In this document: positions 6,958-37,731 of the stretch, piece after piece
Position numbering within the stretch: the first letter of the stretch is position 1
Layout of the letters: every line of letters begins with the position of its first letter
Assembly (NCBI GenBank): GCA_020073645.1
Contig: JAIQET010000004.1
Coordinates: forward strand, 42,656-106,655
Origin: Terriglobia bacterium
GTDB lineage: Bacteria > Acidobacteriota > Terriglobia > Terriglobales > Acidobacteriaceae
Direction of reading: 5' to 3'
Length of the DNA: 64,000 nucleotides
Notes under the pieces: model-generated
The model's input: the letters and a program-made list of their open reading frames with translations, nothing else
Database searches by the model: none
Told to the model about the DNA's origin: nothing
Position numbers and translations under genes: made by a program

Positions 6958-8601
6958 TTATTTCTTCTTCTTGCCAAAGATATCGGTCAAGGCATCGATC
7001 GGTGACGGTTTGTTGCCGGTCTTTCCGGATAACACGTTCTTCAGTGCGCCACCGGCCATTCCTTGTATATCGGGAAGGAAAGCCGGGTTTGAAGTCGTAC
7101 CCTGGATCAGGAACGGAATGCCTCCACCCTTGCCGCCAAGTCCTGCAAGTTGGGTGACTCCGCTCACGGCGCCACCCGTCAGATTCGCGTTCATGCGGAA
7201 ATTGAGGGCGCCGCCCGGGCTGATGGTGCCGCTGCCCGTAACCTCTCCCAGCGCAGGAATGTTGAGGTTGATGTTGTCGGTGCGAATGCCTTCCGGAGCG
7301 GCCCGCAGGTTAGTGCTCAGGTTTTGAATGGTAGTGTCGTTCCCGCCCGCGCTCTTACCGGAGAGAGCAGAGATGGCGGAGAGCTTGGAGCCCAGGTTGA
7401 AACCGGCCAGCCGGGTATCGGCGAGCCGTACCGGCCCGGTGATCACCGGTTTGTCCGTCGGACCGCTGATGCCAAGGTCGAGCGAAAGCGTCCCTCCCTG
7501 GAGGGCGGATCCAGACGGCAAAACCACGCCCAGGGCGGGTAGCATGGCCTGGAGTTCATCCACAGGCATGTTCTGCCCCACCAGTTTCATGTTCAGCAAA
7601 GTCGAGTCACCCTGCGACCGGTAACCCCCAGTCAGGTGGGCGACGGCTTTGCCCATCGCGATGTCTCCCTGGGTGAGCGTGCCGGATTGGCTCTGCAGCG
7701 TGTGGTCCAGCGCGTACTTGAGTTCTACGGGCTTGCTGGCGGGCGTAGCCTTCTCTGCCAGCTTGAGCTTGTCCGCCTTCAAGGCGCCGCTGATGTGCGC
7801 TGCTTTGCCATCGGAGTTCAGCGTGCCATCCAGGTCAGCCAGTCCCGCAATACCGGTAGAGGGATCAACGAACCCGGAAGCTGAAAGGTCGAGCCGCTTG
7901 ATCGCAAGCTTGGCCTCGAGCGGCGTAAGCGAGGCATCCGTGGCATTGATCGGGCCGGCCGTGCCGTCGAGTTTCAGGGTTCCGCCGCCCGGCAAGTCGG
8001 CACTCATGGTGAACGGGAACTTGGAGGTAGCCGAGAAATCCCGGACCTCGATATTCACCTTGTCATACACCTGGGGCTTGGCGGACGAATTTGCCTTTCC
8101 CACCGTCACTCGGCCATCGCTGACGTTCAGCTTGGCGACTGACAAACCGCCGGTGGAAGACGAAGGCTCACTGGACTTGGAAGCAGCAGGAGCGCTGGGC
8201 TTGCTCTCAGATTTCTCCCCCAGGCTGGAGAAGTTCCACTTACCCGAGGACGAGCGCAGCAGCGCGATTTGCGGCTGATCGAGGGTCAGGCCGGTAACGT
8301 GGAGGGTCTTGGAAAAGATCAACGGAAAGATTTCCACGCCCACGCGCAGTGCCTTGGCCCGCACGAATGGCTCTTTACTGAAGGCGGGATCGTCGGCGAT
8401 GGAAATGTCGTCCGCGCCCACACTGCCCGAGATCAGAGAGAACGACAGGTTGCCGACTTTCACCTGCCGGGCAAGCGCGTCCGTCAACTCCGACTCCAAC
8501 CGGGGACGAAAGCTGTTAGCGTCCACGAAGAAGGGAAGAGCGATGACAATCACGAGCAGGACGGCAACGATGATTCCGACGATGCGAAGGGTGCGTTTCA
8601 T
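6958..8601 (-). CDS. AsmA-family protein
   Basis: Large inner-membrane-anchored periplasmic protein (547 aa) of the AsmA family, a group involved in outer-membrane lipid homeostasis and transport. The N-terminal helix (residues 6-24) is followed directly by VDANSFRPRLESELTDALARQV, the AsmA N-terminal hallmark. The rest is repetitive beta-rich sequence with a Ser/Ala/Pro-rich linker (residues about 145-165) and an AsmA-like C-terminal block. The protein ends in a Lys tail (GKKKK). The ATG at 8601 is preceded by GGAGGAGG. It stands alone, upstream of the TauE gene on the same strand, with a 127-base gap. Confidence 0.87.
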   Translation of the reverse strand: MKRTLRIVGIIVAVLLVIVIALPFFVDANSFRPRLESELTDALARQVKVGNLSFSLISGSVGADDISIADDPAFSKEPFVRAKALRVGVEIFPLIFSKTLHVTGLTLDQPQIALLRSSSGKWNFSSLGEKSESKPSAPAASKSSEPSSSTGGLSVAKLNVSDGRVTVGKANSSAKPQVYDKVNIEVRDFSATSKFPFTMSADLPGGGTLKLDGTAGPINATDASLTPLEAKLAIKRLDLSASGFVDPSTGIAGLADLDGTLNSDGKAAHISGALKADKLKLAEKATPASKPVELKYALDHTLQSQSGTLTQGDIAMGKAVAHLTGGYRSQGDSTLLNMKLVGQNMPVDELQAMLPALGVVLPSGSALQGGTLSLDLGISGPTDKPVITGPVRLADTRLAGFNLGSKLSAISALSGKSAGGNDTTIQNLSTNLRAAPEGIRTDNINLNIPALGEVTGSGTISPGGALNFRMNANLTGGAVSGVTQLAGLGGKGGGIPFLIQGTTSNPAFLPDIQGMAGGALKNVLSGKTGNKPSPIDALTDIFGKKKK

Positions 8602-8869
8602 GGCCCGCCTCCTCCATGAAGGCTGATTCCGGGTCTGGCTTGCGTGCGAGCCGCGGGGCCGGGGTTGCCCGCAAGAGTGGGTGCGCATGGGTTGCGCACA
8701 TCGACTGCCCCTCAAAGAAGATGATACTGGAAAGGGAGGGTCGCGTATTTCAAATCCAGGGTTTGGCTGTCAAATTCTTGCCGGGACCTTTCCCAAAACG
8801 GCCGGAGAAGTGCCTCCGTGAGTCACTGGAACAGGTTCCTCGCGCAGAAAAGCGCGCAATCTAGTGCCC

Positions 8870-9751
8870 TCAGTCGCCGGCCGTCAGACCGAGCCGAGAG
8901 CTGCTCACGCGTAGCGGTCTGGGTTTCTTCGCTTGCCCCGTGCGCATCGTTTGTTTCCAGCGGCGTAGGACCTCAAGAATTCCGGTCATAAGCATGGCGG
9001 GCGTCGGTGGACAACCGGGAATGTAGCCGTCGACTGGCAGCACGTCATCGACCGCGCCCACGACGGCGTGACTGCCGGCAAAAATACCTCCGCTGCACCC
9101 GCAGGCCCCAACCGCAACCACGAGCTTGGGAGCAGAGGTTGCCTCGAACGTCTGCCGAACTGCCTCTGCCATATTGCGGGTGACGGGGCCGGTTACGAGC
9201 AGCATGTCCGCATGCTTGGGTGAGGCCACGAAGTGGATACCGAAGCGTTCCAGGTCGTAATACGGATTAGTCAGGGCGGTGATCTCGGCTTCGCAGCCAT
9301 TGCACGATCCGGCATCCAGCTGTCGAATATTGAGAGCCCGCCCGATCAACGAACGGATCTCTCGCGCAAGCTCAGCGGGGTCACAACCAAGCTCGGCCGA
9401 AATCTCCAGGCCCGTAGTTGTATCCCAGCGCCGCACAAGTCGCTCCCGCGTGACCCCGCACCGGGTGAACGCTTCGGTGACATGGAATGCAGAAGCCGCT
9501 GCTTCCGCGCAGTGCCCGCAGGCGATGCACTCGCCGTAATCCATACGTAACTGCACGTGGCCTCCGGGAATAGGGTGGAGCGTGAGCGCGGAGGTGGGGC
9601 AGACTGCAACTGCGCGCTCGGCCAACTGCGGAGTCAGCGAACGGCCATTCACTTCCGGCAAACGGCTGCCCTTGGCGTCACCGAGCAACGCTTGGACGGG
9701 TATCAGGCGCTGTCTCGCCTGCAAACTCTGATGAACCACATCGAAGATCAT
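8870..9751 (-). CDS. NuoB/HyfI-like small subunit fused to an N-terminal [4Fe-4S] ferredoxin domain (Ehr complex)
   Basis: Electron-transfer subunit (293 aa) of a hydrogenase-related membrane complex. Residues about 40-95 hold a single-cluster ferredoxin-like segment with Cys75, Cys78, Cys81 and a distal Cys51-Pro. Residues about 140-260 are the NuoB/HycG-like 20-kDa domain with SCNGCEAE (Cys150, Cys153), ACGCSGG (217/219) and GCPPTP (Cys247), so the proximal cluster is kept. Separate ferredoxin and small-subunit genes are usual in Hyc/Hyf operons; here they are fused, and no other ferredoxin gene exists in the cluster. The ATG at 9751 overlaps the upstream stop as ATGA; an in-frame GTG at 9760 is an alternative. 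It is the last gene of the leftward operon. Confidence 0.88.
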   Translation of the reverse strand: MIFDVVHQSLQARQRLIPVQALLGDAKGSRLPEVNGRSLTPQLAERAVAVCPTSALTLHPIPGGHVQLRMDYGECIACGHCAEAAASAFHVTEAFTRCGVTRERLVRRWDTTTGLEISAELGCDPAELAREIRSLIGRALNIRQLDAGSCNGCEAEITALTNPYYDLERFGIHFVASPKHADMLLVTGPVTRNMAEAVRQTFEATSAPKLVVAVGACGCSGGIFAGSHAVVGAVDDVLPVDGYIPGCPPTPAMLMTGILEVLRRWKQTMRTGQAKKPRPLRVSSSRLGLTAGD

Positions 9752-11220
9752 CGATCGCACCCGGAATAGGAAAGGTTGAAGCTCTTGTTGATAAGCGGGA
9801 AGTCCGCAATGATGTTGTCAGCGACTGCAAAGGGTAGTGCCGGCCAGTTTTGAAACGAAGGCGACTTGATATGACACCGCGCAATCTGCCCTCTGCGGCA
9901 GGAAACCCAGTAGAGCAGTTCCCCTCGCGGCGACTCGACGGCCGAGAAACCCTGGGCATCCTTCTCAAAACCGGCAGCCGCGCACGTTGGGCCTGGCGGC
10001 AGGTTCGCCGCAATCTCGCTGATGAGCTGGGCTGAGACCGCAGCCTCGTTAATTCGGACCCGAGCCCGTGCGAGTACGTCCCCGTAGTGGAAGACAGGTA
10101 GGTCGATGGCCTGTTCGGTGTAGGCCCCGTAGGGGTGATCGCGACGGACGTCGAGTGCAATCCCGCTGGCCCGCGCGACGACACCAACCACAGCCAAGTC
10201 CCGCGCCACGTTCGCCAGGAGAACCCCGGCGCCCTCAAAGCGATTCTGTACCGAGGCGGTATCGAGCACTTTTCGTGCAAGACTGGCAAACTCGCCAGAG
10301 GCCCGCTCTACAGCGGCCGCCAGGCTGCTTGCCGCGGCCGATGAGAAGTCGCGGTTGACCCCGCCAGGTGTGGCCATGCCACGCCAGTAACGCGTACCAA
10401 CGCAGGCCGCAGAAACCCGCAGCAGGTCTTCCTTGATGCGGCTGGCATAGGCAGCAGGAACCGTGAAGCCAACGTCTCCACAGAGGGCGCCGACGTCGGC
10501 CACATGCGCAAGCATTCGTTCCAGTTCGAGCCCGATCAGGCGAATGGCCGCCGCCCGCCGAGGCACTTGAACGCCAAAGGCGTTCTCGACCGCTTCACAA
10601 TATGCGACGGCGTGGGCAAAGCAGTTGTCCCCGGATACGGATTCGGCAATCAGCATGCCGCGCGCGACTGGGCTTTGCTCAAATAGTTTCTCGGTTCCCT
10701 TGTGGGTGTAGAAGTGCCGCAACTCGAGGTGGATTACCCGGTCGCCCATGACACTGAAACGGAAGTGTCCCGGCTCAATAATGCCGGCGTGGACAGGGCC
10801 GACCGCGACTTCACACACGCCGTCACCGTGTACCTCCAGGAACGGATAGGGACGTGAAGCCCAGGGCACAGAGCCGACCGCACTCACCATGGGGTGAACG
10901 CCATCAGGCCAATTCTCGTGCAACACGAGCGGCCGGAGATCCGGGTGGCCCAGGATTTCGATGCCGTACTGATCGTGAACCTCACGCTCGTACCATGCGG
11001 CCGCTGGAGTGATAGCAGTGATGGATGTCACGGGACGGTCCGCGGCAAACTGGAAGAACCGGTAACCCGACGCGCCGGCATCTACTACGTAGTGGATTGA
11101 GAGCTTGTGTTCTCCGTCCTTCGTCCCAAACACCGAAACCAGGCGTCCCGAGCGAAGCGACTCGTGCAAGCTCTCGGTAGTGTTGGTGTGGCTCATAAAA
11201 CCCAGCCTATTGGAGGTCAT
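9748..11220 (-). CDS. Hydrogenase-4-like large subunit lacking Ni-Fe ligands (NuoC-NuoD fusion, Ehr type)
   Basis: 490-residue fusion of a NuoC-like N-terminal domain (residues about 1-120, with AWYEREVHDQYGI) and a NuoD/HyfG-like large-subunit domain. In true group 4 hydrogenases the first nickel motif is RICGIC and the second DPCxxC. Here the aligned segments are ESVSGDNCFAH (residues 193-203) and NLSYSGCDR (482-490), so all four cysteines are replaced (Ser196, Asn199, Ser484, Gly487). The protein ends exactly at the Arg where maturation proteases normally cut. This fits the energy-converting hydrogenase-related (Ehr) complexes, whose reaction is unknown. It overlaps both neighbours by ATGA. 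Confidence 0.9.
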   Translation of the reverse strand: MTSNRLGFMSHTNTTESLHESLRSGRLVSVFGTKDGEHKLSIHYVVDAGASGYRFFQFAADRPVTSITAITPAAAWYEREVHDQYGIEILGHPDLRPLVLHENWPDGVHPMVSAVGSVPWASRPYPFLEVHGDGVCEVAVGPVHAGIIEPGHFRFSVMGDRVIHLELRHFYTHKGTEKLFEQSPVARGMLIAESVSGDNCFAHAVAYCEAVENAFGVQVPRRAAAIRLIGLELERMLAHVADVGALCGDVGFTVPAAYASRIKEDLLRVSAACVGTRYWRGMATPGGVNRDFSSAAASSLAAAVERASGEFASLARKVLDTASVQNRFEGAGVLLANVARDLAVVGVVARASGIALDVRRDHPYGAYTEQAIDLPVFHYGDVLARARVRINEAAVSAQLISEIAANLPPGPTCAAAGFEKDAQGFSAVESPRGELLYWVSCRRGQIARCHIKSPSFQNWPALPFAVADNIIADFPLINKSFNLSYSGCDR

Positions 11221-12665
11221 TGCTGCAGTACCGCCATGGCCCCTTCGACCACCTTCTGGAACTGGACCGGGACATGTACGCCGAAGATCAGCAGCACCAC
11301 CGCGCAGGCGCCAATCACTGCTAGCTCTGTTCCCGCGACCTTTCGTGATTCTGGCGTGTCCTTCGGCTCTCCTCCGAGCATGTGGAGGAAGTGGAAAAGC
11401 AGGGCGCCAAATGCAAGCGTGAGACCCACCAGGAGGATTACAGCGACCAGGTACCGTGCCTGGGAAAAGGCTCCGCTGAGAATAGCAAACTCACTTACAA
11501 AAAGCGCAAACGGGGGCATGCCAACAATCGCCAGACCGCCAAAGATCAGCGCCCCGCTGGTGAAGGGCAGCATTCGTATCATGCCGCTGATCCGGTCTAT
11601 CCGCAGCGTACCCAGTTTCTCGCGAACGTTGCCAGCGGCAAAGAAGAGCACGGACTTGGCCAGTGAATGGTTGAATGTGTGCAAGAGCGCCCCGTAGAGG
11701 CCGAGCGGCCCTCCCAGGCCGATGCCGGTGGCGATGATGCCCATGTGTTCGACACTGCTGTAGGCGAACAGGCGCTTAAGGTCCCGCTGCACGATCATCA
11801 GAAGCCCCGCAATAAGGATCGAAACGCCGCCAAACAGCAAGAGCAGGTGGTGACTGAACCCCGGTCCAATCGCTCGCACAGCGATGGCGTCAAAGCGCAA
11901 CAGTGCATACATGGCGCAGTTCAGCAGAGCGGCCGAAAGCATCGCGCTAATCGGAGAAGGCGCCTCCGCATGGGCGTCTGGAAGCCAGCTGTGAAGCGGT
12001 ACGAACCCAACCTTTGTGCCGTAGCCCACGATGAGAAACACGAAGGCGAGCTTCACCAGGTTTTTCATAATAGAGAGCTGCGGCGCTGCTGTCACAAGGC
12101 TGGTCCAGTCAAGGGCTGAACCTCCCGCAACTCCCGATTTCACCGCAGCCAGATAAAGTGCGATGGTGCCGAACAGGGCAAAGGCGAGTCCGACCGTGCA
12201 GACGACCAGGTACTTCCATCCTGCCTCAACCGCTCCCTCCGTCTCGTAGAACCCGACGAGCAAGGCGGAGGCCAATGTTGTGCCCTCCATGAAAATCCAG
12301 AGCAGCCCGAGGTTGGAGGACAGGTAGGAGGCAAGCATGGTGAACAGAAACAGGAAAAGCAGAGCATAGAACCAACGCAGGGAAGAGAACCGTTCCGGAG
12401 GCAGATGCCGGAGGTATCCCGATGAATACACCAGCACAAGGGCAAAAATGAGGCAAAGACTCGCGAGAAAAACCGTGGTGAGGTGGTCCGCCCGGAGATA
12501 TCGTCCAAAGGTAATGCTGCCGTGGCGATAGGTCGCGAACATCAGCCAACTCAGGGCTGCAATTTCAGCCGCGCCAATCAGAAGCGCAGTCCTGGTCCCG
12601 CGCCGGAAGAACAACACAACGGCTGCGCCGAGGACGGGAATGAGGAGTGGGAGCAAAAGCACCAT
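11217..12665 (-). CDS. HyfF/NuoN-like antiporter subunit (Ehr complex)
   Basis: Polytopic proton-translocating subunit (482 aa, about 14 helices) of the Mrp-antiporter/NuoL-M-N family, closest in pattern to hydrogenase-4 component F. Motifs include YGTKVGFVPLHSWLPDAHAE with the conserved lysine and PDAHAEAPSPISAML, then RDLKRLFAYSSVEHMGI and LLHTFNHSLAKSVLFFAAG, which hold the ion-path lysines and histidines. It sits between HyfE-like and large-subunit genes, and its stop overlaps the next start. An AGGG-type ribosome binding site precedes the ATG at 12665. It presumably couples the redox reaction to proton or Na+ movement. Confidence 0.92.
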   Translation of the reverse strand: MVLLLPLLIPVLGAAVVLFFRRGTRTALLIGAAEIAALSWLMFATYRHGSITFGRYLRADHLTTVFLASLCLIFALVLVYSSGYLRHLPPERFSSLRWFYALLFLFLFTMLASYLSSNLGLLWIFMEGTTLASALLVGFYETEGAVEAGWKYLVVCTVGLAFALFGTIALYLAAVKSGVAGGSALDWTSLVTAAPQLSIMKNLVKLAFVFLIVGYGTKVGFVPLHSWLPDAHAEAPSPISAMLSAALLNCAMYALLRFDAIAVRAIGPGFSHHLLLLFGGVSILIAGLLMIVQRDLKRLFAYSSVEHMGIIATGIGLGGPLGLYGALLHTFNHSLAKSVLFFAAGNVREKLGTLRIDRISGMIRMLPFTSGALIFGGLAIVGMPPFALFVSEFAILSGAFSQARYLVAVILLVGLTLAFGALLFHFLHMLGGEPKDTPESRKVAGTELAVIGACAVVLLIFGVHVPVQFQKVVEGAMAVLQQ

Positions 12666-12669
12666 GGCC

Positions 12670-13332
12670 CTAACCCCTCAACCGCCGTAGCTTGGAAACG
12701 TCGAGGTGCTCGAACGTATCGCGAATGCGGAACGCGAAGACGCCCATCAATAGGACACCCATAATGAGGTCGAAAAAGACGCCGATCTCAATGATCATGG
12801 GCATGCCGAAAGTGGTGATCAGCGCCGCGAGAAAGATTCCGTTTTCGAGCACGAGCAGGGCGATGATTTGCATCAGCGCTTTGCCGTGGCTCACCATGAG
12901 GAAGGCGCCGCTCAGGATCAGGGCCACGGCAGCCGCAAGGACATCTTCAGAGACCCGCAATTCCTGCACGTACGTGTGCACCGCCGTGAAGGAAAGGAAG
13001 ATCAAGCCTGCGGTTATGAATACAGAGTAGACGGGACTCAGCGAAAGCTTAACGTCGCGTGGCGCTTGCAGCTTATCGACCAGGCGAAACAGCGCATAGG
13101 GAATACCCAAGACCTTAATCAGGATGACGAGGCCGCCAATCACGTACGACTCGGTGGAGCGATGAATATGGGCAACGGCCAGCACCTGCGCCGCAAGGAC
13201 GGCCGACTGAAGGGCAAAGGCCACGATGCTGGTCGACATGCGCTTTGCCGCTGCCAGCATGAGAACGGTCAGGAACAGCAGCACGGCAGCCGAACCCATT
13301 GCCTTGCTTGCCGCCAGATCGACTAAAACCAT
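12670..13332 (-). CDS. HyfE-like membrane subunit (Ehr complex)
   Basis: Small polytopic membrane subunit (220 aa, about six to seven helices) matching the hydrogenase-4 component E/NuoK-like family. The end of the protein (FFDLIMGVLLMGVFAFRIRD) and the central SHGKALMQIIALLVLENGIF, with its conserved glutamate, are family-typical. The ATG at 13332 has GAGGAGA upstream, and the next gene starts 5 bases after its stop. HyfE and HyfF are present in this cluster but absent from the second hydrogenase cluster at 28-38 kb, so the two complexes differ in their membrane arms. Confidence 0.9.
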   Translation of the reverse strand: MVLVDLAASKAMGSAAVLLFLTVLMLAAAKRMSTSIVAFALQSAVLAAQVLAVAHIHRSTESYVIGGLVILIKVLGIPYALFRLVDKLQAPRDVKLSLSPVYSVFITAGLIFLSFTAVHTYVQELRVSEDVLAAAVALILSGAFLMVSHGKALMQIIALLVLENGIFLAALITTFGMPMIIEIGVFFDLIMGVLLMGVFAFRIRDTFEHLDVSKLRRLRG

Positions 13333-13335
13333 TCG

Positions 13336-14280
13336 TTATCTCCTCAGTAGAGCAGTAAAAACCACTGCCAGAGCCCCCAGTGCCGTGGCGATGCCCAGGA
13401 ATTCTGGAACCATGTACATGCGAAGTTTTGCAATGCTGCTTTCGAGCACTGCGATCACGATTGCCAGCACCACGAGCTTCAGGAGGTACGCGCCCAGGCC
13501 GAGAGCGAGTCCCGCCAACGTCAGGTTCGCGGCCATCCCCCAAGGAGCAAAAAGGCCGATGAGCAGGGAAAGAACCACAGTCAACTTGACGGCCTGGGCC
13601 CATTCGATGAGCGCAAGGCTCGGTCCCGAGTACTCCAGCACCATTGCCTCATGAATCATCGTGAGTTCCAGGTGCGTGGTTGGATTGTCTACCGGCATCC
13701 GTCCAGTTTCCGCAATGGCCACCATGGCGAGCGCGGCAAAGGCCACCGCATGCACGGCGGACACGTCGAAGAAGTTCTGGCTCAGCGTCCACCTCACGAT
13801 TTCGACGATGTTCCCCTGGCCGGCGAGAATGGCCACTGCAATGAGTCCCAAGAGCAGCGGAGCTTCCGCCAGCGCCGAAATCATGGCCTCACGGCTGGCG
13901 CCCATCCCGGCAAACGAACTGCTGCCGTCGAGAGCGCCCAGACCCATGAAAAATCGCCCCAGGGCCAAGACATAAACCAGGACGATGAAATCTCCTGCAA
14001 ATGCCAACAGCGCCGACTGGTTAACGGTGGGGACCAACGCCGCAGCCACGAAGGTCGAGGCGGCGAGCATCATGGGAGCAAAGCGAAAGAGTGGGGACGA
14101 GTCAGGCGGTACCAGGTCCTCCTTGCGAAATAATTTCAGGAGGTCGGCATACGGTCGCCACAGATTGGTCCCCTGGCGCCGCTGGATGACTGCCTTGACG
14201 CGGGCAATCAGAGCCCGCAGCAGAGGGGCGCCGAGAACCAGGAGCAGGTACTGAAGAACATTTGCGGCTGCTGTCGTCAT
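13336..14280 (-). CDS. NuoH/HyfC-like membrane subunit (Ehr complex)
   Basis: Membrane subunit (314 aa, eight helices) homologous to NuoH, HycD and HyfC, which forms the docking site between the hydrophilic and ion-pumping arms. Recognisable segments are VIQRRQGTNLWRPYADLLKL near the N-terminus, AETGRMPVDNPTTHLELTMI, with the acidic pocket residues, and HEAMVLEYSGPSLALIEWAQ. The ATG at 14280 overlaps the upstream TGA (ATGA), so translation is coupled to the HyfB-like gene. A long open extension upstream in this frame (to 15081) overlaps that gene and is not coding. Confidence 0.92.
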   Translation of the reverse strand: MTTAAANVLQYLLLVLGAPLLRALIARVKAVIQRRQGTNLWRPYADLLKLFRKEDLVPPDSSPLFRFAPMMLAASTFVAAALVPTVNQSALLAFAGDFIVLVYVLALGRFFMGLGALDGSSSFAGMGASREAMISALAEAPLLLGLIAVAILAGQGNIVEIVRWTLSQNFFDVSAVHAVAFAALAMVAIAETGRMPVDNPTTHLELTMIHEAMVLEYSGPSLALIEWAQAVKLTVVLSLLIGLFAPWGMAANLTLAGLALGLGAYLLKLVVLAIVIAVLESSIAKLRMYMVPEFLGIATALGALAVVFTALLRR

Positions 14281-16259
14281 CGAAGCACTTTCACCAGAGC
14301 GAGGAGCGAGACCAGGGTCAGAAAGATGTAGAGCAAGTACATCTGGACGTTGCCTGTGTGCAGTCGGCGGACTTGGTTCGCGGCGGCCACGATCGCGTCC
14401 ACGGCAGGGCGGTAGAGTGATTGTTCGAACGAGGTCGTCCGCTCGGAACGGTACGACACCGCTACCGGAAAGTAGGGTTGATCTGCAGGCAGAACCTCGA
14501 TCTTCCGGTTTGGCCTGTATACAGCCGCAAAAACGGAGCGAAGAGGCTTTGAGAAAACCGTTGGCGTGTACTGCATCCTCGGGGAGAGCGTCGGCAGTCC
14601 GCAGGCCCAGATTGCTGTGACACGGGTGGCACGAGGTATGGCCATGGCCAGGAGGAGAATACCGACGACACACGTGGTCAGGATCGGAAGCACCCTTGGC
14701 AGCAGCGACAGCTCTTGTGCAACATTCCCGGAAGGTATCAAGCTTGCTGCCACCAGCGAAAGCGGTCCAAGCAGGAGTGCCGGGTAGACTCCCACCGCCA
14801 CGCATGCCAGAGCCAGCACACCGGTGCCGAGGCACATCCCGAAAGGAACTTCGCCAGCCGATTTCGCAGCTACGCCACGGGGTCGTCCCAGGAACGCAGT
14901 CCCGAATAGTCCCATGAAGCATGCCGCAGCGAGTCCGCCCACGAGTGCGAGGACCCCAGCAGCGAGCGGCAATATGATCTGGGCTACCGGACTGGGCAGG
15001 GTAGCGCCGGCAAGAAAGCTCCGAAACGTGAGCCACTCGCTTACGAAACCGTTGAAGAGCGGCAGCCCGGCGATGGAGCAACAGGCGACCAGCAGGGTCG
15101 CGCCGGTGTACGGCATTCGCGCGAACAGCCCGCCGAGTTCATCCAGGTTCAGCGTGTGCGTAGTTGTGGAAACCGATCCTGCTCCCATGAAGAGCACGCT
15201 TTTGAAAAGCGCGTGGTTGACCGTGTGGGCGAGCGCAGCCACAAGTGCAAGGCTTGCCCACATGGGAGCCTGGTATGCCTGGAAGATCAGCGCAGCGCCG
15301 AGACCCAGGTAGATAATGCCGATATTCTCCACGCTGCTGTAAGCCAGAAGCCGCTTGAGGTCCCTTTCCGCCAATGCATAGAGAATCCCCAGCACGGACG
15401 ACACCACCCCGGCCAGAAGTACGAGGTAACCCCACCAGGCCGCGGGATGCGGGAGGAAATCAAACCCGAAACGGACCAACCCGTATACCGCGGTCTTCAG
15501 CATCACGCCCGACATGAGGGCCGAAACCGGACTAGGCGCGATCGGATGGGTCCGCGGCAGCCAGAGGTGAAGCGGAATCACACCGGCCTTGGTGGAAAAG
15601 CCAAGGAACGCCAAGAGATATATGGCAATCGCGGTGCGTCCTGGCAGTGTTCCACCCGCTGCACGAATCTGGGTGAAGGTGAGCCCGTGGGTATAAGGCA
15701 GGAAAAGGAAGAACGAGGCCGCGACCGCGGCGGCTCCTGCGTGCATCATCAAGAGATAGATCAGCAGATTGTGCCGGCGCTCCGGGGAATCGCCATCGGC
15801 GGCAACCAATGCCGCCGAAAACACCGTCATGAGTTCCCAGCCAAACAAGAACGCAAATGCGGACGCTGCGGTTACGACAAGAACCATGGACAGAACAAAC
15901 AGCGGCAAAAATGTCCAGATCCACGCTTGCTGCCCCGTGCCGTAGTGCCGCTCGATGTAGGCAACCGAGAACACCGTGGTGGCCGCCGTAACCGCACAAA
16001 TCAAGAAGACGAAGAGGGAACTCAGCCGGTCCAGGGTGAGCACGAACGGGAAGGGCAGGAGGTGGGAAAGATCAACGATGGGAAGCTGTCCGGTCCGCCA
16101 GCTCAATAGAGTTGTTGCAGCCCCCAAGAACATCGACACGAATAGGAGGACTGGAACCACCCTCCGGTATCGGGAGGAGCGCCAGCCTGGTAGCAGGATC
16201 AGAGGTATGGCGACCGGGATGGCTAAATGGAGATCAAAGAACAGTCGGGTCAGTTGCAA
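14277..16259 (-). CDS. HyfB/NuoL-like antiporter subunit (Ehr complex)
   Basis: First gene of the operon, a 660-residue antiporter-like subunit with about 16 hydrophobic segments. Family motifs include FGWELMTVFSAALVAADGDS, FSTKAGVIPLHLWLPRTHPI, and RDLKRLLAYSSVENIGIIYL with the channel lysine. The only usable start is a TTG at 16259, because an in-frame stop lies five codons upstream; GAGGA precedes it by nine bases. A small overlapping reading frame (16250-16339) ends just inside the gene and might act as a leader. A promoter and operator-like repeat lie 170-200 bases upstream. Confidence 0.9.
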   Translation of the reverse strand: MQLTRLFFDLHLAIPVAIPLILLPGWRSSRYRRVVPVLLFVSMFLGAATTLLSWRTGQLPIVDLSHLLPFPFVLTLDRLSSLFVFLICAVTAATTVFSVAYIERHYGTGQQAWIWTFLPLFVLSMVLVVTAASAFAFLFGWELMTVFSAALVAADGDSPERRHNLLIYLLMMHAGAAAVAASFFLFLPYTHGLTFTQIRAAGGTLPGRTAIAIYLLAFLGFSTKAGVIPLHLWLPRTHPIAPSPVSALMSGVMLKTAVYGLVRFGFDFLPHPAAWWGYLVLLAGVVSSVLGILYALAERDLKRLLAYSSVENIGIIYLGLGAALIFQAYQAPMWASLALVAALAHTVNHALFKSVLFMGAGSVSTTTHTLNLDELGGLFARMPYTGATLLVACCSIAGLPLFNGFVSEWLTFRSFLAGATLPSPVAQIILPLAAGVLALVGGLAAACFMGLFGTAFLGRPRGVAAKSAGEVPFGMCLGTGVLALACVAVGVYPALLLGPLSLVAASLIPSGNVAQELSLLPRVLPILTTCVVGILLLAMAIPRATRVTAIWACGLPTLSPRMQYTPTVFSKPLRSVFAAVYRPNRKIEVLPADQPYFPVAVSYRSERTTSFEQSLYRPAVDAIVAAANQVRRLHTGNVQMYLLYIFLTLVSLLALVKVLR

Positions 16260-16468: not shown

Positions 16469-16807
16469 CTAGCCCTTGTTGCCAGAAGTGACTGCCAGTT
16501 GAGACAGCAGGTCTTTCACGTCGATCAGATGGTTGTTAAAAATCTTCTTGGCTGCGTCCAACAACTTGAAAATTTCCGGGTCGCGAACCGAGTACAAAAC
16601 ACTCTGTCCGTCTTTCCTGCCTACCACAATGCTGCGGCTTCTCAGGACGGCCAATTGCTGCGATAGCGTGCTTTGTTCGACCTCCAGGCGCAGACAGAGT
16701 TCATTCACGCCGACTTCGCCGCGGCGCAACTCGTCCAGGATCCTGATTCGCAGGGGGTGAGCCAGTGCTTTGAAGAACTCTGCCTTGAAGTGACTAAGCT
16801 CGGGCAT
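16469..16807 (-). CDS. ArsR/SmtB-family transcriptional regulator
   Basis: Winged-helix repressor of the ArsR family (112 aa). It has FFKALAHPLRIRILDELRRG at residues 11-30, the recognition helix region VEQSTLSQQLAVLRSRSIVV, and the wing GRKDGQSVLYSVRDPE. The classical metal motif ELCVCDL is reduced to ELCLRLE with a single cysteine (Cys38), so metal sensing through alpha-3 is doubtful and a redox or other signal is possible. It lies directly upstream of the Ehr operon on the same strand, and similar AT-rich sites precede both, so it probably controls that operon and itself. Confidence 0.9.
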   Translation of the reverse strand: MPELSHFKAEFFKALAHPLRIRILDELRRGEVGVNELCLRLEVEQSTLSQQLAVLRSRSIVVGRKDGQSVLYSVRDPEIFKLLDAAKKIFNNHLIDVKDLLSQLAVTSGNKG

Positions 16808-16815: not shown

Positions 16816-16846
16816 AATATTTGCATATTACAATTTATTGTGTCAA
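16816..16846 (-). promoter_or_regulatory. Candidate arsR promoter and operator dyad
   Basis: A perfect TTGACA (-35) is read leftward from 16846 to 16841. Downstream of it lies the dyad AATAT-TTGC-ATATT (16816-16829), where the -10 element should be, ending eight bases before the ATG at 16807. This placement is typical for autorepression. The -10 itself is poor (AAATAT at 18-base spacing). Confidence 0.5.
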
Positions 16847-27926: not shown

Positions 27927-28017
27927 CCTATCACCGCAGTTCTGACAGGGGGCTCCGTAGTATCAAAACTGTGGTGGTGTGCCTGCGCACAGGCATGGGA
28001 GCCCGAGTTGCAACGCT

Positions 28018-30045
28018 ATGGCGCATAAGCTGACCACGTGCACCTTCTGCGGTGTGGGTTGCGGGATCTACCTCGAGACCTCGGGCAACCAGGTGGTGGG
28101 GACTTACCCCAGCGTTTCCCACCCTACCAACGCCGGTAGAATCTGCGTCCGCGGTTGGCATGTCCACGAAGTCGCCAGTTCGCCCGACCGCGTGAAAGGT
28201 CCGCTGCTCCGGAAGAACGGCGAGTTCCGCGAGGTGAGCTGGGACGAGGCGCTCGGTTTCATTGCCTCCCGCATGAAGGAGATCCGTGATCAGCACGGGC
28301 CCGACGCGCTGGCTTTTCTGAATTCCCCACGCTGCTCCAACGAAGAAACTTACCTGCTGCAGAAATTCGCCCGCGCGGTCATCGGCACCAACAACGTGCA
28401 CCATGGGACCGGGGTGTATTGCAACAACTCGATCAATGTCCTGCTCGACATGATCGGCATCCCGGCCACGACCAACTCCATAGCGGAGTTGGCGCAGAGC
28501 GAGGTCATCGTTGTAGACGGCGTGGACCTGGCGCGGCGGCTGCCCACTCTGGGTGGGGCTGTCATCCGGGCCAAACTGAATGGGGCCCGGCTCATCGTGG
28601 TGGGTACGCGCCGCCATCGCGTAGCGGAGAGCGCTGACCTCTTCTTGCAGATCAAGCCCAACACCGAAGCTCTGCTCTACGGCGCGATGGCCAAGGTCAT
28701 CGTGGATCGCGGGCTGATGGATCTTCCTTTCATCAAGGCCCGGTGCCGTGACTACGAGGCCTTCCTGGCGCAAGTGAGCGCCTACGATTTGTTGCAGGCG
28801 GCGGAGGGCTGTGGCGTATCCCCCGACCTGATCGAAGCCGCAGCCTTGACCTACGCCCGTGCCAAGGCGGCGGCCCTGCTTTATTCCAGCAGCATGGAAG
28901 AGCGCACCCGGGACAGCATTCGCTCGGTCGTGAACCTGGCCCTGCTTACCGGCAACCTGGGCAAGCCCGGAGCGGGGATCTTCGCCCTGACCGAGCAGAA
29001 CAATCTGCAAGGCGTGTGCGACATGGGGATGCTGCCCGACCGCCTACCCGGCTACGAGCCGGTTACGAACGCCGCCGCGCGCGCGGCCCTGGAAGCGGTC
29101 TGGAAAGCCAAGATCCCGCCCACCCCGGGCTTGGGTTCTCGTGCAGTGTTGACTGATCGCGGGCAAGGCAAAGTCAAAGCGCTCTGGCTCTCCCGCCACG
29201 ATCCTACGAACACCGCATCCCTGGGGGATGTCCCCGATACCCTCCGCCAATTCGACCTGGTCGTGGTGCAGCACCTTTTCATGACTGACATCTCGCAGTA
29301 CGCCCACGTGGTGTTACCGACGACCGCGTTTGGCGAGGAGGAAGTCTCCTTCACCAGCACCGAGCGGCGCATTCAGTTGGCAGAGAAAGTCATTGATCCG
29401 CCCGCGGGACTGACCCCCGCCTGGGCGCAAATCACGCAACTGGCGCGGCGCATGGGGGCGAACTGGAATTACCAGTCCGCCGCCGAGGTCATGGAAGAGA
29501 TCGGCGAAGCGGTTCCGCTCTACGGTGGCGCCAGCTACGAGAATCTGGCGCGCGAGTATGGCCGCCAATGGCCCTGCACCAAAGACCGCCCGCTGGGGAC
29601 GCGGTTTCTGTTCGGCGAGAACGGTAACAGCCGGCCCTTCCGCTTCATTGCGGTTCCCAAACCTCCGCCAACTGTGCAGACGACCAAAGATTTCCCGCTC
29701 TGTCTGGTCTTTGGAAATTCGTTGTACTACTGGAACCAGAATGTGCTGGTCCGGCACAGCGAAACCCTCAAGCGCGAATACCGCAGCCTGTTTCTCGACT
29801 ATCCCGAGGGGTTTGTTGAACTCAATCCCGAGGACGCCAAACGGCTCAGTGTCCGTGATGGGGAAAAGATCCGGTTGTGCGCGGAGAGCGCGACCGCCGT
29901 CGCCACCGCGCGAGTCACGCCCGAAATCATGAACGGCACTGTCTTTGTTCCCCATTTCATGCGCGAGGTGGAGAGGCAACTGCTCGGTTTGGGGCGGAGC
30001 GGCGACAAGTTGGTCCCGGCCCGTGTGGAAAAGGAGGCTGTGTGA
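28018..30045 (+). CDS. FdhA-like molybdopterin oxidoreductase with altered active site
   Basis: 675-residue member of the formate dehydrogenase H branch of molybdopterin enzymes. An N-terminal [4Fe-4S] site uses Cys8, Cys11, Cys15 and Cys43. Fold signatures include EETYLLQKFARAVIGTNNV, VVNLALLTGNLGKPGAGIF and NNLQGVCDMGMLPDRLPGYE. In formate dehydrogenases, GTNNVDxCARV is followed by SeCys/Cys-His. Here the same place reads HHGTGVYCNNS (residues 128-138), so Tyr134 sits at the Mo-ligand position and Cys135 at the His position; the codon is TAT, not TGA. The conserved active-site Arg (SIRSVVNLAL) is kept. It may oxidise another substrate or only relay electrons. The ATG at 28018 opens the operon. 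Confidence 0.87.
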   Translation: MAHKLTTCTFCGVGCGIYLETSGNQVVGTYPSVSHPTNAGRICVRGWHVHEVASSPDRVKGPLLRKNGEFREVSWDEALGFIASRMKEIRDQHGPDALAFLNSPRCSNEETYLLQKFARAVIGTNNVHHGTGVYCNNSINVLLDMIGIPATTNSIAELAQSEVIVVDGVDLARRLPTLGGAVIRAKLNGARLIVVGTRRHRVAESADLFLQIKPNTEALLYGAMAKVIVDRGLMDLPFIKARCRDYEAFLAQVSAYDLLQAAEGCGVSPDLIEAAALTYARAKAAALLYSSSMEERTRDSIRSVVNLALLTGNLGKPGAGIFALTEQNNLQGVCDMGMLPDRLPGYEPVTNAAARAALEAVWKAKIPPTPGLGSRAVLTDRGQGKVKALWLSRHDPTNTASLGDVPDTLRQFDLVVVQHLFMTDISQYAHVVLPTTAFGEEEVSFTSTERRIQLAEKVIDPPAGLTPAWAQITQLARRMGANWNYQSAAEVMEEIGEAVPLYGGASYENLAREYGRQWPCTKDRPLGTRFLFGENGNSRPFRFIAVPKPPPTVQTTKDFPLCLVFGNSLYYWNQNVLVRHSETLKREYRSLFLDYPEGFVELNPEDAKRLSVRDGEKIRLCAESATAVATARVTPEIMNGTVFVPHFMREVERQLLGLGRSGDKLVPARVEKEAV

Positions 30046-31130
30046 AAGCCCGCATCCTCAACCGCACGGACGCGTTGAAGATCGTCGATCTGCTCCGCCA
30101 GCAGGGCTACGAGGTCATTGCGCCCTTCCGAGGACGTGGGCGCGACACCTTCTTTGAGACGGTTACCGACCAGAACCGCGACCAGGTCCAGCTTCACCTG
30201 CCCAACCCGTACTACCCGCCGAAGCGCTATGTGTTCCCGCACATCGAACGTTTGCTCACGGTCAAGCGGGACAATGGCGACATCCGCATTCAGCCTTCCT
30301 ACGAGGAACCGAAGCGGGCCATCTTCGGAATCCGCTCGTGCGACGTCGCCGGCATCTACCACCTCGATCGTTTCTACCTGGGCCGCGACTTCAAGGACAT
30401 CTACTACGAGAACCACCGCAAGAACCTGTTCCTGGTGAATTTCGTCTGCAGCGATCCTGCAAACGATATCGGCGACGAATGCTTCTGCGTCTGCGCCGAC
30501 ACCGGACCTGCCGCCCGCGAGCACTTCGATTTGCAACTAATGGACCTGGGCGACGAATTCATGGCGGTGGCCGGCACGCCCGCCGGCGAAGCGCTGTTCG
30601 CGGACCCGATCTTCAAGAAGGCCACCGATGCGCATGTGGCCAGGCGCCACGCCATCCTCGACCAGGTGCGTAAAGCGTTTAAGACCACTACCAGCTGGTT
30701 TTCGGCCACGGTGCGTTATGTTTCGCAAGGCGACATCCTGGACAAGACCTGGGAAGAAATCGGCAATCGCTGCTTGGAATGTGGCGGCTGCACCTACGTC
30801 TGTCCGGCGTGCACCTGCTTTACCGTGAGTGACCGCCAGGTAGGACCGAACGAGATCGAGCGGGTGCGCATGTGGGACTCCTGCGGCCTGGGAGGCTTCA
30901 CCCGCATGGCGGGAGGCTTCAATCCCCGGCGGGCGGTGCACGACCGCCGCAACCGCCGCTTCTTCCGCAAGCTGGCCCACTATTTCATCCAGCGTGAGCT
31001 TTCCATGGCCTGCGTGGGTTGCGGGCGTTGTGCTGCGGTCTGTCATGGCGATATCGGAATGCCGAGCGTGGTGGAGATGATTCGCCGCGCCACGGCGGAG
31101 GTTGAAAAGCGTGAATCCGTCAGCCACTGA
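30042..31130 (+). CDS. Dicluster ferredoxin subunit, HydB/sulfhydrogenase-beta-like
   Basis: 362-residue soluble iron-sulfur protein resembling the beta subunit of archaeal sulfhydrogenases and AsrA. The N-terminal domain (residues 1-235) includes AIFGIRSCDVAGIYHLDRF and CSDPANDIGDECFC. Two ferredoxin clusters follow: Cys244, 247, 250, 254 (CLECGGCTYVCPACTC) and Cys324, 327, 330, 334 (CVGCGRCAAVC). The start is a GTG at 30042 that overlaps the FdhA stop (GTGTGA), with AAGGAGG upstream; the longer open frame is a shadow of fdhA. It would carry electrons between the molybdoprotein and the flavin subunit or the hydrogenase arm. Confidence 0.9.
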   Translation: MKARILNRTDALKIVDLLRQQGYEVIAPFRGRGRDTFFETVTDQNRDQVQLHLPNPYYPPKRYVFPHIERLLTVKRDNGDIRIQPSYEEPKRAIFGIRSCDVAGIYHLDRFYLGRDFKDIYYENHRKNLFLVNFVCSDPANDIGDECFCVCADTGPAAREHFDLQLMDLGDEFMAVAGTPAGEALFADPIFKKATDAHVARRHAILDQVRKAFKTTTSWFSATVRYVSQGDILDKTWEEIGNRCLECGGCTYVCPACTCFTVSDRQVGPNEIERVRMWDSCGLGGFTRMAGGFNPRRAVHDRRNRRFFRKLAHYFIQRELSMACVGCGRCAAVCHGDIGMPSVVEMIRRATAEVEKRESVSH

Positions 31131-32001
31131 GAACGTACGTCCGACGGTGACCGCCCGCCGTGAGCAGGCAGAGAACATCTATCTGCCCAGAATCGCCGTG
31201 CTCGACCGGGTGGTGCAGGAAATCCAGGACGTCAAGACGTTCTACTGGCACTTCGAAGATCCAGTGGACCAGCGGGCCTTCAGGTGTTTCCGCCCCGGAC
31301 AGTTTGCGGAAGTGTCGCTTTTTGGTGTCGGGGAATTTCCTACTTCACTGCCGCCCAGCCCCACCGAAGCGGAAACTTTCTTCACCGTGCGCCATGTGGG
31401 CAGTTGCACATCGGCCCTCCACCAGCTTCGTCCCGGCGACAAGTTCGCGGTGCGCGGTCCCTACGGCAACGGTTTCCCGATGGAGGACTACTACGGCAAG
31501 AACCTGGTGTTCGTGGCCGGCGGCATCGGGCTGATTCCGCTGCGTTCGGCCATCGTTTACGCGCTTCAAAACCGCAAGCAGTACCAGCGCATCCAGATTT
31601 TCCACGGCGCCAAGACCCCGAAAGAATTGATGTACGTGCCCAACCTGGGCGAATGGGAACACACGCCCGGCGTCGAATGCCACCTCACCGTGGACCGTTC
31701 CGCCGAAGGCTGGAGCGGGAATGTGGGCGTGGTGGGCAGCCTGTTCAAGAAGCCCGGCGTACAGGTGCCGGTGGAGAACACCGTGGCCTTCGTCTGCGGC
31801 CCGCCCATCATGTTTCGCTTCGTCATCAAAGATCTGCTGGGCATGGGATTTCAGGAGCGCAACATCGTTTCCACGCTGGAGCGCTACATGAAGTGCGGCG
31901 TGGGCAAATGCGGTCACTGCTGCATCGGCGTGGCCTACGTCTGCGTGGACGGCCCGGTATTCACCTACGAGCAGATCAAGAAGCTCGGGGAGGACATCTG
32001 A
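31111..32001 (+). CDS. FAD/NAD(P)-binding oxidoreductase with C-terminal [2Fe-2S] (HydG/PyrK-like gamma subunit)
   Basis: 296-residue ferredoxin-reductase-type subunit. It has an FAD domain (RPGQFAEVSLFGVGEFP, then FTVRHVGSCTSAL), an NAD(P) domain (NLVFVAGGIGLIPLRSAI) and a C-terminal [2Fe-2S] motif (YMKCGVGKCGHCCIG), as in sulfhydrogenase gamma and dihydroorotate dehydrogenase electron-transfer subunits. The GTG at 31111, with GGAGG nine bases upstream, is preferred over a TTG at 31102; it overlaps the end of the ferredoxin gene. It implies exchange of electrons with NAD(H) or NADP(H). Confidence 0.9.
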   Translation: MNPSATENVRPTVTARREQAENIYLPRIAVLDRVVQEIQDVKTFYWHFEDPVDQRAFRCFRPGQFAEVSLFGVGEFPTSLPPSPTEAETFFTVRHVGSCTSALHQLRPGDKFAVRGPYGNGFPMEDYYGKNLVFVAGGIGLIPLRSAIVYALQNRKQYQRIQIFHGAKTPKELMYVPNLGEWEHTPGVECHLTVDRSAEGWSGNVGVVGSLFKKPGVQVPVENTVAFVCGPPIMFRFVIKDLLGMGFQERNIVSTLERYMKCGVGKCGHCCIGVAYVCVDGPVFTYEQIKKLGEDI

Positions 32002-32549
32002 TGGGGGCATCTGATGGGGGACACCCGATGAACAACCTGCGCCAACAACTTCAGCAGTGCCTGAAGGGCCGCGTTCGCCTCATGGGCCTCGGCAACGTGG
32101 ATTATGGCGACGACGGTTTCGGCGTGCGCCTGGCGGAGGAACTGGTTGCGGCCGGCGTGCCCGGCGTGATCATCGCAGGAACCACACTGGATCGTTATCT
32201 CGGTCGCGTCGTGGACGAAGGCTTTGACCATCTTGTGTTTCTCGATGCCGTGGAATTTGGCGGTGCGCCCGGTTCGGTCGTATTTCTGGACTCCGGGGAG
32301 ATGGCCGCCCGCTTCCCGCAGGTCTCCACCCACAAGATTTCCCTGGGCGTGTGGGCCATGTGGGTCGAAGCCACCGGAAGAACCAAGGCCTGGCTGCTGG
32401 GAGTACAGCCGGAATCAATCAAGCCCGGCCAGATGCTTACGCCCACTATGCAGACAACGCTGACATCGCTGAGCGAGATACTGTGCAGCCTCGCGCCGCT
32501 GCAGACGAAGGAAGCTGCCCCCGAGTTCAGTGAGGAAGTGAACGCATGA
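32001..32549 (+). CDS. [NiFe]-hydrogenase maturation protease (HycI/HyaD-like)
   Basis: 182-residue endopeptidase that removes the C-terminal tail of the large subunit after nickel insertion. The signature GLGNVDYGDDGFGVRLAEEL (residues 29-48), the second acidic motif VFLDAVEFGG and a downstream His (VSTHKISLG) correspond to the nickel-sensing residues of the family. The ATG at 32001 overlaps the previous stop (TGATG) with GGGGAGG upstream; an in-frame ATG at 32028 is possible. Its presence matches the cleavable tail on the large subunit at 34471. Confidence 0.93.
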   Translation: MGASDGGHPMNNLRQQLQQCLKGRVRLMGLGNVDYGDDGFGVRLAEELVAAGVPGVIIAGTTLDRYLGRVVDEGFDHLVFLDAVEFGGAPGSVVFLDSGEMAARFPQVSTHKISLGVWAMWVEATGRTKAWLLGVQPESIKPGQMLTPTMQTTLTSLSEILCSLAPLQTKEAAPEFSEEVNA

Positions 32550-37076: not shown

Positions 37077-37089
37077 ACACGGTTACGTA

Positions 37090-37131: not shown

Positions 37132-37202
37132 ACAATGGGCGAGATGCGCTCGCCTGCCCAGACGAGGACATCTGGGCCTGCGTGGTTTGCGGAGACGCAC
37201 GC

Positions 37203-37727: not shown

Positions 37728-37731
37728 GCTT

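What the first reader, a model, noticed from the sequence alone, without database searches (positions are those of the whole stretch)
8870..16259. Complete Ehr-type complex: a hydrogenase-like ion pump with no nickel site
Six overlapping genes encode HyfB-, HyfC-, HyfE-, HyfF-, large- and small-subunit-like proteins. The large subunit has lost all four Ni-Fe ligands (Ser196, Asn199, Ser484, Gly487). The small subunit keeps its cluster cysteines and the antiporter subunits keep their channel lysines. The machine should still move electrons and ions but cannot be a hydrogenase. Ehr complexes are described as a class, but their reaction is unknown.
Basis: partly seen in the sequence, partly recalled or inferred. 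Interest (0 to 1): 0.75.

Follow-up and report, generated by a model that had tools for sequence, protein, structure and literature searches.

The report
Nickel-free hydrogenase-like pump, rebuilt pocket
A bacterium carries a complete hydrogenase-like set of membrane proteins in which the four nickel-holding cysteines are gone and a different, strongly conserved set of residues stands in their place, so it is predicted to pump ions with electrons from some donor other than hydrogen, which would give the search for its unknown reaction a precise starting point.

Summary
Window 8870-16259 (minus strand) encodes a complete Ehr-type complex, a described class of nickel-less relatives of group 4 hydrogenases. 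S196/N199/S484/G487 stand where the four [NiFe] cysteines of HycE stand. New here: (1) The pocket is rewritten, not decayed: Glu149, His239, Arg350, Glu392 and canopy Arg432 are kept in at least 385 of 389 Ehr rows, the canopy Asp is Asn or Ser in 384, and Asp198 and Tyr485 are near-invariant. (2) 361 of 361 listed Ehr proteins lack the C-terminal extension that four true hydrogenases have. (3) In one almost wholly acidobacterial clade a cysteine follows each lost ligand pair (C200 121/121, C488 119/121; 0 of 240 other listed proteins). (4) The small subunit's ferredoxin domain is cut to one cluster. (5) An Rv0081-like ArsR gene lies upstream behind a site found once in the 4.43-Mb genome. Tested pocket features of hydrogenase, complex I and the sulfane reductase MBS are not met. 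Most likely it passes electrons from a ferredoxin-type donor to a small acceptor in the metal-free pocket and pumps ions; the acceptor is unknown. New variant of a known kind.

The parts
16817..16828 (-). candidate operator ATATGCAAATAT, 9 bases before the arsR start codon
   Evidence: one match to ATATGCRAATAT in the window and one in the whole 4.43-Mb genome, control 0; pattern chosen from upstream regions of relatives, exact in 6 of 12 acidobacterial records
16469..16807 (-). arsR-type regulator, 112 aa, upstream of hyfB with a 209-nt gap
   Evidence: Pfam HTH_5; best PDB match Rv0081 6jmi, E 2.2e-19; homologue in 14 of 27 records incl. the window
14277..16259 (-). HyfB-like antiporter subunit (660 aa, TTG start)
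   Evidence: best PDB HycC 7z0s_C; E142, K224, K302, H349, K353 in 26/26
13336..14280 (-). HyfC/HycD/NuoH-like subunit (314 aa)
   Evidence: best PDB HycD 7z0s_D E 6.1e-44
12670..13332 (-). HyfE-like membrane subunit (220 aa)
   Evidence: NCBIfam NF008556 hydrogenase 4 membrane subunit, E 1.2e-26, under its cut-off; no Pfam match and no PDB match
11217..12665 (-). HyfF-like antiporter subunit (482 aa)
   Evidence: E127, K218, K337 conserved
9748..11220 (-). large subunit, NuoC+NuoD/HycE-like, 490 aa, without nickel ligands
   Evidence: model pLDDT 88.0, pTM 0.91; best fold HycE 7z0s_E TM 0.91
10774..10776 (-). Glu149 codon, equals HycE Glu193 (proton-exchange glutamate of the beta1-beta2 loop)
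   Evidence: Glu in 388 of 389 rows
10621..10635 (-). first ligand motif rewritten: S196-G-D198-N199-C200 in place of C-G-I-C-G
9751..9777 (-). second ligand motif rewritten and C-terminus: N482-L-S484-Y485-S-G487-C488-D-R490; the chain ends here
8870..9760 (-). small subunit, HyfI/NuoB-like with N-terminal ferredoxin domain (probable start ATG 9751)
9509..9601 (-). one-cluster ferredoxin motif C54-P ... C78xxC81xxC84 (numbering from GTG 9760)
   Evidence: 23 of 23 CC-clade small subunits keep all four; residues 31-100 modelled at block means of pLDDT 84-97 though the whole model is poor
9011..9304 (-). proximal-cluster cysteines C153, C156, C220, C250, and clade-typical C222
   Evidence: C153, C156, C220, C250 in 61 of 61 small subunits aligned; C222 in 22 of 23 of the clade

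Best explanation
This operon encodes a six-subunit Ehr complex whose large subunit has none of the four nickel-iron cysteines but carries a different conserved set of residues in their place, and it likely passes electrons from a ferredoxin-type donor, through two predicted iron-sulfur clusters, to a small acceptor that would bind in the metal-free pocket, driving ion pumping across the membrane. Shown by sequence: loss of all four ligands and of the C-terminal extension; retention of the proton-route residues Glu149, His239, Arg350, Glu392 and Arg432; Asn482 at the canopy Asp position; cysteines for one ferredoxin cluster plus the proximal cluster; conserved charged residues in HyfB, HyfC, HyfE and HyfF. 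Inferred: that the donor docks on the remaining ferredoxin cluster (the one next to the proximal cluster, by analogy with N6b of complex I, recalled), that the acceptor sits where NiFe used to sit, and that redox drives HyfB/HyfF as in complex I and formate hydrogenlyase. In this clade C200 and C488 are predicted to line the same pocket and to take part as a thiol/disulfide pair. Expression is likely controlled locally by the ArsR protein at its single candidate operator. The chemical identity of donor and acceptor is not known.
For: Ligand loss. C-terminus: 0 residues past the motif in 361 of 361 listed Ehr proteins (query included) against 27, 28, 28 and 35 in four true hydrogenases. Proton-route residues (roles from PMC9474812, passages): in 389 Ehr rows E149 388, R432 389, E392 389, H239 388, R350 385 with 4 Lys; D198 388, Y485 387 with one gap (28 locus rows partly repeat listed proteins). 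Fold: HycE TM 0.91. Ferredoxin domain: all eight cysteines in eight of nine Omnitrophota small subunits (the ninth, L049, is broken there), four of eight in 23 of 23 CC-clade ones. Cys pair: C200 121/121 and C488 119/121 in the close relatives, 0 of 240 in the lists of the other two protein searches; clade on one branch, SH-aLRT 99 and 100 in quick trees. Membrane residues.
Against: No donor, acceptor or partner gene is conserved beside the operon except arsR (27 records, several cut short). Thirteen of the loci have no ferredoxin domain, so the donor side is not uniform. C488 lies in a stretch modelled poorly (residues 486-490 under pLDDT 50), so C200-C488 proximity is not shown. The Cys pair appears once on the tree, so its covariation is one event; 14 columns in all, not only these two, are fixed in the clade and absent outside. 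Nine of 389 rows (all Rhodococcus-type) have Cys at position 196, as has L017. Two other acidobacterial loci (L079, L083) keep one cysteine of the lost ferredoxin cluster. No biochemistry exists here.
Confidence: 0.5

Rival explanations
1. The complex is a quinone reductase (or quinol oxidase running in reverse) that re-invented complex I chemistry: quinone would bind in the vacated pocket and be reduced by the proximal cluster.
For: Same fold as NuoD (query-normalised TM up to 0.85); complex I is a precedent for losing NiFe and gaining quinone; the chain ends at the same column as this genome's NuoD.
Against: The pocket-motif tyrosine of this genome's own NuoD is Gly197 in 388 of 389 Ehr rows, the loop residue is Glu149 (complex I: His, PMC9474812), and the Asp that PMC9474812 calls strictly conserved, and needed for quinone reduction, is Asn or Ser in 384 of 389. 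HyfC is closest to HycD of a hydrogenase (E 6.1e-44); complex I subunits start at 1e-11. The first two cluster cysteines are CxxC, not adjacent as in complex I.
Confidence: 0.2
2. It is a sulfane/polysulfide reductase like MBS of Pyrococcus, using the proximal cluster itself, helped in this clade by the Cys pair.
For: MBS is a solved precedent for a metal-free pocket under a proximal cluster (PMC7684303, passages); thiols beside the pocket would suit sulfur chemistry.
Against: MBS's hallmark, a cysteine motif three residues shorter than in MBH so that one iron lacks a Cys, is absent: the small subunit aligns with MbhJ without a gap. The two ligand cysteines that MBS keeps are both gone here.
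Confidence: 0.1
3. The four clade-typical cysteines (large C200, C488; small C101, C222) hold a new metal or iron-sulfur site at the subunit interface where NiFe was.
For: C200 and C488 follow both former ligand pairs; C101 is in 21 of 23 and C222 in 22 of 23 CC-clade small subunits, C101 in none and C222 in one of the other 15 one-cluster acidobacterial loci (L034 set aside).
Against: Two close relatives have Ser at 488, two lack C101, one lacks C222; C222 also occurs in 3 of 13 loci without a ferredoxin domain; geometry unknown.
Confidence: 0.12
4. The complex no longer does redox catalysis; it is a regulated ion antiporter in which the hydrogenase-like arm serves as a redox sensor or plug.
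For: Ehr versions without a ferredoxin domain have no visible electron input; no partner enzyme is conserved beside this operon.
Against: All proximal-cluster cysteines are kept in 61 of 61 small subunits aligned, and the proton-route residues are kept, which a plug would not need.
Confidence: 0.08

Closest known systems
Ehr (energy-converting / Ech-hydrogenase-related) complexes of Geobacter, Nitrospira, ammonia-oxidising archaea, CPR, Margulisbacteria
   Same: Group-4-like large subunit without NiFe cysteines, complex-I/Mrp-like membrane subunits, function unknown (PMC7894505, PMC10284858, PMC10432482, PMC7304191, PMC6349859; passages).
   Different: This clade adds C200/C488, a one-cluster ferredoxin domain on the small subunit and an arsR gene. 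No published EhrL sequence was among my rows, so the placement rests on the definition, not on a shared tree. The label is loose in print: PMC3569383 (passage) files even a complex with all four cysteines under Ehr.
E. coli formate hydrogenlyase-1 (HycE, 7z0s)
   Same: Best sequence and fold match of the large subunit (E 6.3e-71, TM 0.91); matching HycC, HycD and HycG; same proton-route residues.
   Different: No NiFe ligands, canopy Asp is Asn, no C-terminal extension, no formate dehydrogenase in the operon.
MBS, membrane-bound sulfane reductase of Pyrococcus furiosus (6u8y)
   Same: Lost NiFe site, proximal cluster above a pocket, antiporter-type membrane arm.
   Different: MBS keeps two ligand cysteines and has a shortened cluster motif; neither is seen here.
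Respiratory complex I (NuoB/C/D/H)
   Same: Fold, loss of NiFe, no C-terminal extension.
   Different: No pocket Tyr or canopy Asp, CxxC instead of adjacent Cys, no NADH module in the operon.
Mycobacterium tuberculosis Rv0081-Rv0088 ('hyc', predicted formate hydrogenlyase)
   Same: The ArsR protein here is closest to Rv0081 among PDB chains and lies upstream of a Hyf-like operon.
   Different: The Rv0082-Rv0087 proteins themselves were not fetched or compared; the relation is inferred only.

Membership tests
Ehr complex | group-4-type large subunit lacking the [NiFe] cysteines | tested here: met
   S196, N199, S484, G487 against C241, C244, C531, C534 of HycE (the offset of 12 in the tagged chain is my reading)
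Ehr complex | Hyf/Mrp-like membrane subunits and small subunit in one operon | tested here: met
Ehr complex | falls apart from true [NiFe] large subunits in a tree | tested here: met
   quick trees, SH-aLRT 99 (references include NuoD) and 100
Ehr complex | groups with published EhrL proteins (e.g. Geobacter GSU0739-45) | not tested
   no such sequence was among the rows
[NiFe] hydrogenase group 4 | two CxxC ligand motifs | tested here: not met
[NiFe] hydrogenase group 4 | C-terminal extension removed by maturation protease (recalled) | tested here: not met
   0 residues past the motif; 28 in the true hydrogenase of this window
[NiFe] hydrogenase group 4 | canopy Arg and Asp | tested here: not met
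   Arg432 kept, Asp replaced by Asn482
Complex I | pocket Tyr and canopy Asp of NuoD | tested here: not met
   Gly197 and Asn482; the role of the Tyr is recalled
Complex I | adjacent cysteines in NuoB | tested here: not met
   C153xxC156; feature from PMC7684303 (passage)
MBS sulfane reductase | proximal-cluster motif three residues shorter than in MBH | tested here: not met
   ungapped alignment with MbhJ
MBS sulfane reductase | two of four ligand cysteines kept | tested here: not met
   none kept in this protein
Formate hydrogenlyase | formate dehydrogenase in the complex | tested here: inconclusive
   none in the operon or its conserved surroundings; an FdhF-like gene lies about 11 kb away in the other operon
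any ion pump | ion movement driven by electrons | not testable with these tools
   only conserved channel residues

The most novel reading that the evidence does not exclude
In one acidobacterial lineage the vacated nickel-iron pocket of Ehr has been rebuilt around cysteines: C200 and C488 of the large subunit, each one residue after a lost ligand pair, with C101 and C222 of the small subunit, form a new redox site (a dithiol/disulfide or a new metal centre) that replaces NiFe and does a reaction not known in the complex I superfamily.
Probability: 0.25. Interest if true: 0.8.

Novelty: new variant of a known kind. Interest (0 to 1): 0.55.

Why it matters
Ehr complexes are reported from Geobacter, nitrifiers and candidate phyla, and turn up here also in acidobacteria, Omnitrophota, actinobacteria, proteobacterial plasmids and methane-oxidising archaea, yet their reaction is unknown. 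This locus turns 'lost its nickel' into testable statements: which residues of the old proton route are kept, which canopy acid is gone, which new residues (Asp198, Tyr485) mark the pocket, and in this clade two cysteines that can be mutated, labelled or trapped. If the pocket works without metal, it would be a further chemistry in the complex I superfamily beside H2, sulfur and quinone. The shortened ferredoxin wire and the one-site ArsR operator give handles for finding donor and inducer.

Tried and rejected
A shifted-ligand hydrogenase was considered because of C200 and C488; rejected because other Ehr proteins with the same pocket signature lack them, the canopy Asp is gone and there is no C-terminal extension. 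MBS membership was tested on the small-subunit motif and rejected. The search for a conserved partner dehydrogenase beside the operon gave nothing but arsR (several records are cut short). The small-subunit model is poor outside the ferredoxin domain (mean pLDDT 61.0), so its fold search adds little beyond sequence. The careful tree was not finished; quick trees are used with an unresolved backbone, so I do not claim which Ehr group is nearest to the CC clade. Literature: the listings, and the passages opened from them, showed no report of the +1 cysteines or of the Asn at the canopy position; I read no whole paper, and most subscription papers are not held.

Rows dropped before counts. Each protein search lists only its best 120 of about 8000 scored. 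One search left out L001-L006, L018-L021, L023, L024 and L051 (not Ehr, another type, partial, or the window itself), six duplicates (L007-L011, L013) and every locus without a small-subunit hit (among Ehr loci L012, L045, L067, L070, L074, L082, L084, L085). L034 is counted there in the other one-cluster group although its small subunit is of CC-clade type, because its large-subunit frame is broken near the end.
Full report
What is there. The window lies at G000:C19:42656-106655 of a 4.43-Mb draft genome. The named close relatives of the large subunit are acidobacterial except one labelled Methylomirabilis (P0066), so the host is inferred to be an acidobacterium. On the minus strand, from 16807 down to 8870, run arsR, hyfB, hyfC, hyfE, hyfF, large subunit and small subunit. 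Three of five junctions among the six complex genes overlap by 4 nt and two have gaps of 3 and 4 nt; arsR is 209 nt upstream of hyfB, so its place in the same transcript is inferred.

Ligands. phmmer aligns the large subunit with HycE of E. coli formate hydrogenlyase (7z0s_E, E 6.3e-71). CGIC becomes S196-G-D-N199 and DPCYSC becomes N482-L-S484-Y-S-G487. The same is seen against four true hydrogenase large subunits, one of them encoded by the same window at 34471-36147, which keeps CGIC and DPCFSC. Among the query and the 120 listed homologues, S196, S484 and G487 are in 121 of 121 and N199 in 117. The replacements are strongly conserved, which does not look like decay.

What the pocket kept. 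PMC9474812 (passages) names the proton-route residues of HycE: beta1-beta2 loop D192/E193, canopy R478/D529/S283, and H284, E437, R395. Mapped through (the tagged chain is offset by 12, my reading) these are I148/E149, R432/N482/A238, H239, E392 and R350. In 389 Ehr rows (121 close relatives, 120 Rhodococcus-type, 58 Omnitrophota-type, 62 of a group that includes Methanoperedens, and 28 locus rows that partly repeat them) E149 is kept in 388, R432 and E392 in 389, H239 in 388 and R350 in 385 with four Lys. The Asp529 position, called strictly conserved in that paper, is Asn in 321, Ser in 63, Gly in two, Thr in one, Asp in one, with one gap. Asp198 and Tyr485, absent from the four hydrogenases, are in 388 and 387 of 389. 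Against a tidy loss: nine of 389 rows, all Rhodococcus-type, have Cys at position 196, and so has L017, which is outside those rows.

C-terminus. Group 4 large subunits are made with an extension that a protease removes (recalled). After the motif the four true hydrogenases have 27, 28, 28 and 35 residues; 361 of 361 Ehr proteins (query plus the three lists) have none, nor has this genome's NuoD. The true hydrogenase operon of this window has its own HycI-type protease gene.

The shifted cysteines. C200 and C488 follow directly on the second ligand position of each pair. C200 is in 121 of 121 and C488 in 119 of 121 close relatives (two Ser), and neither position is Cys in any of the 240 proteins listed by the other two searches, where the pair is mostly Ser, Thr or Ala with Asn. 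Fifteen other acidobacterial loci have Ser or Ala with Thr, others have Ser or Gly with Asn or Ala with Gln (L014-L016), and seven proteobacterial plasmid loci Thr with His. Of nine cysteines in the query only these two are fixed in the clade and missing outside; but 14 columns in all show that pattern, so the pair is part of a wider divergence. One very divergent row, L018, has Cys at 488 alone. The clade is one side of a branch with SH-aLRT 99 (71 rows) and 100 (47 rows), both quick trees. So, as far as sampled, the pair arose once and its covariation is a single event. In the small subunit C101 (21 of 23) and C222 (22 of 23) are also typical of the clade. Of the 16 loci in the other one-cluster group the only C101 and one of two C222 belong to L034, itself of CC-clade type with a broken large-subunit frame. 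Omnitrophota have neither in 9 of 9; three of 13 loci without a ferredoxin domain have C222.

The wire. Eight of nine Omnitrophota small subunits show all eight cysteines of a two-cluster ferredoxin domain; the ninth (L049) is broken there. The CC clade keeps C54, C78, C81 and C84 in 23 of 23 and the other acidobacterial group in 16 of 16. The other four cysteines are absent in the 22 CC-clade sequences that the motif scan could read; in the other group L079 and L083 keep the fourth cysteine of the second motif. By the known pairing in two-cluster ferredoxins (recalled) the CC clade has lost one whole cluster and kept the other whole; by analogy with NuoI (recalled) the one kept is next to the proximal cluster. 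Thirteen loci have no ferredoxin domain: five acidobacterial ones and eight plasmid records of Rhodococcus, Burkholderia, Paraburkholderia, Bradyrhizobium, Methylovirgula, Azospirillum, Rhizobium and Variovorax (eight of 244 plasmid records with a match were opened). The pocket signature stays while the donor side varies.

Membrane arm and fold. HyfB, HyfF, HyfC and HyfE keep charged residues in membrane segments. The large-subunit model is good (pLDDT 88.0, pTM 0.91) except residues 1-11, 142-150 and 486-490, the last two being pocket loops, so the distance from C200 to C488 cannot be read. The best fold match is HycE, TM 0.91, ahead of complex I.

Regulation. The ArsR protein's best PDB match is Rv0081 (E 2.2e-19), named in the title of a paper on the M. 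tuberculosis Rv0081-Rv0088 locus, a predicted formate hydrogenlyase (seen in a reference list; gene list in PMC3087520, passage). Homologues lie upstream of Ehr genes in 13 of 26 related records, in L032 about 3 kb away. Within 80 nt upstream of the start, six of 12 acidobacterial records, the window included, hold exact ATATGCRAATAT; neither of the two Omnitrophota records does. In this genome it occurs once. The pattern was chosen after seeing the alignment.

How it most likely works. Donor (ferredoxin-type, inferred) to the remaining ferredoxin cluster, to the proximal cluster, to a small acceptor in the metal-free pocket, with protons by Glu149 and the His239-Glu392-Arg350 route, and pumping by HyfB/HyfF/HyfC. 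Hydrogenase, complex I quinone chemistry and MBS sulfur chemistry each fail at least two tested features. No gene for a partner enzyme is conserved beside the operon. Geobacter has more Ehr protein on formate than in hydrogen-containing conditions (PMC7894505, passage), a hint only.

Spread. At E 1e-40, 60 of 299 genomes drawn from the class have a match, and 16 of 61 relatives; these counts include true hydrogenases and are not counts of Ehr.

Novelty. Ehr is known, and HydDB treats it as a homologue that does not metabolise H2 (PMC5037454, passage). The retained proton route, the neutral canopy, the C-terminus, the shifted cysteine pair and the one-cluster wire were not found in print or in the passages opened. 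Hence: new variant of a known kind.

Noticed in passing
window 27979-38268 (+): A second, true group-4 [NiFe] hydrogenase operon about 11 kb from the Ehr operon: FdhF-like molybdoenzyme, 4Fe-4S protein, FAD/NAD-binding diaphorase-like protein, HycI protease, HyfB, large subunit with CGIC and DPCFSC, HycD, ferredoxin-like protein and a small subunit (37732-38268). Formate dehydrogenase, an NAD(P)-type module and a hydrogenase in one operon is worth a look.
   Followed up: partly
window 16817-16828 (-): Candidate ArsR operator that occurs once in the whole genome, just before the arsR gene.
   Followed up: yes
L018 (genome G034): A different nickel-less large subunit, motifs AATSAFAH and LSATECDR, on a very long branch: possibly a further type of hydrogenase-like complex.
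   Followed up: no
L007 and L022 (genome G022): One genome carries two Ehr large subunits, one with the Cys pair and one without, so the two types may have different roles.
   Followed up: no
G227, G184, G212, G172, G150, G062: Matches of 28-30% identity with one in-frame stop each, recurring in six genomes of the class; not examined.
   Followed up: no
L034 around 8528-11467: The large-subunit frame appears broken near its end and runs together with the HyfF frame; assembly error or decay not settled.
   Followed up: no
proteins P0315, P0327, P0343 and others: Methanoperedens and ANME-2 archaea carry Ehr-type large subunits with Ser at the canopy Asp position.
   Followed up: partly
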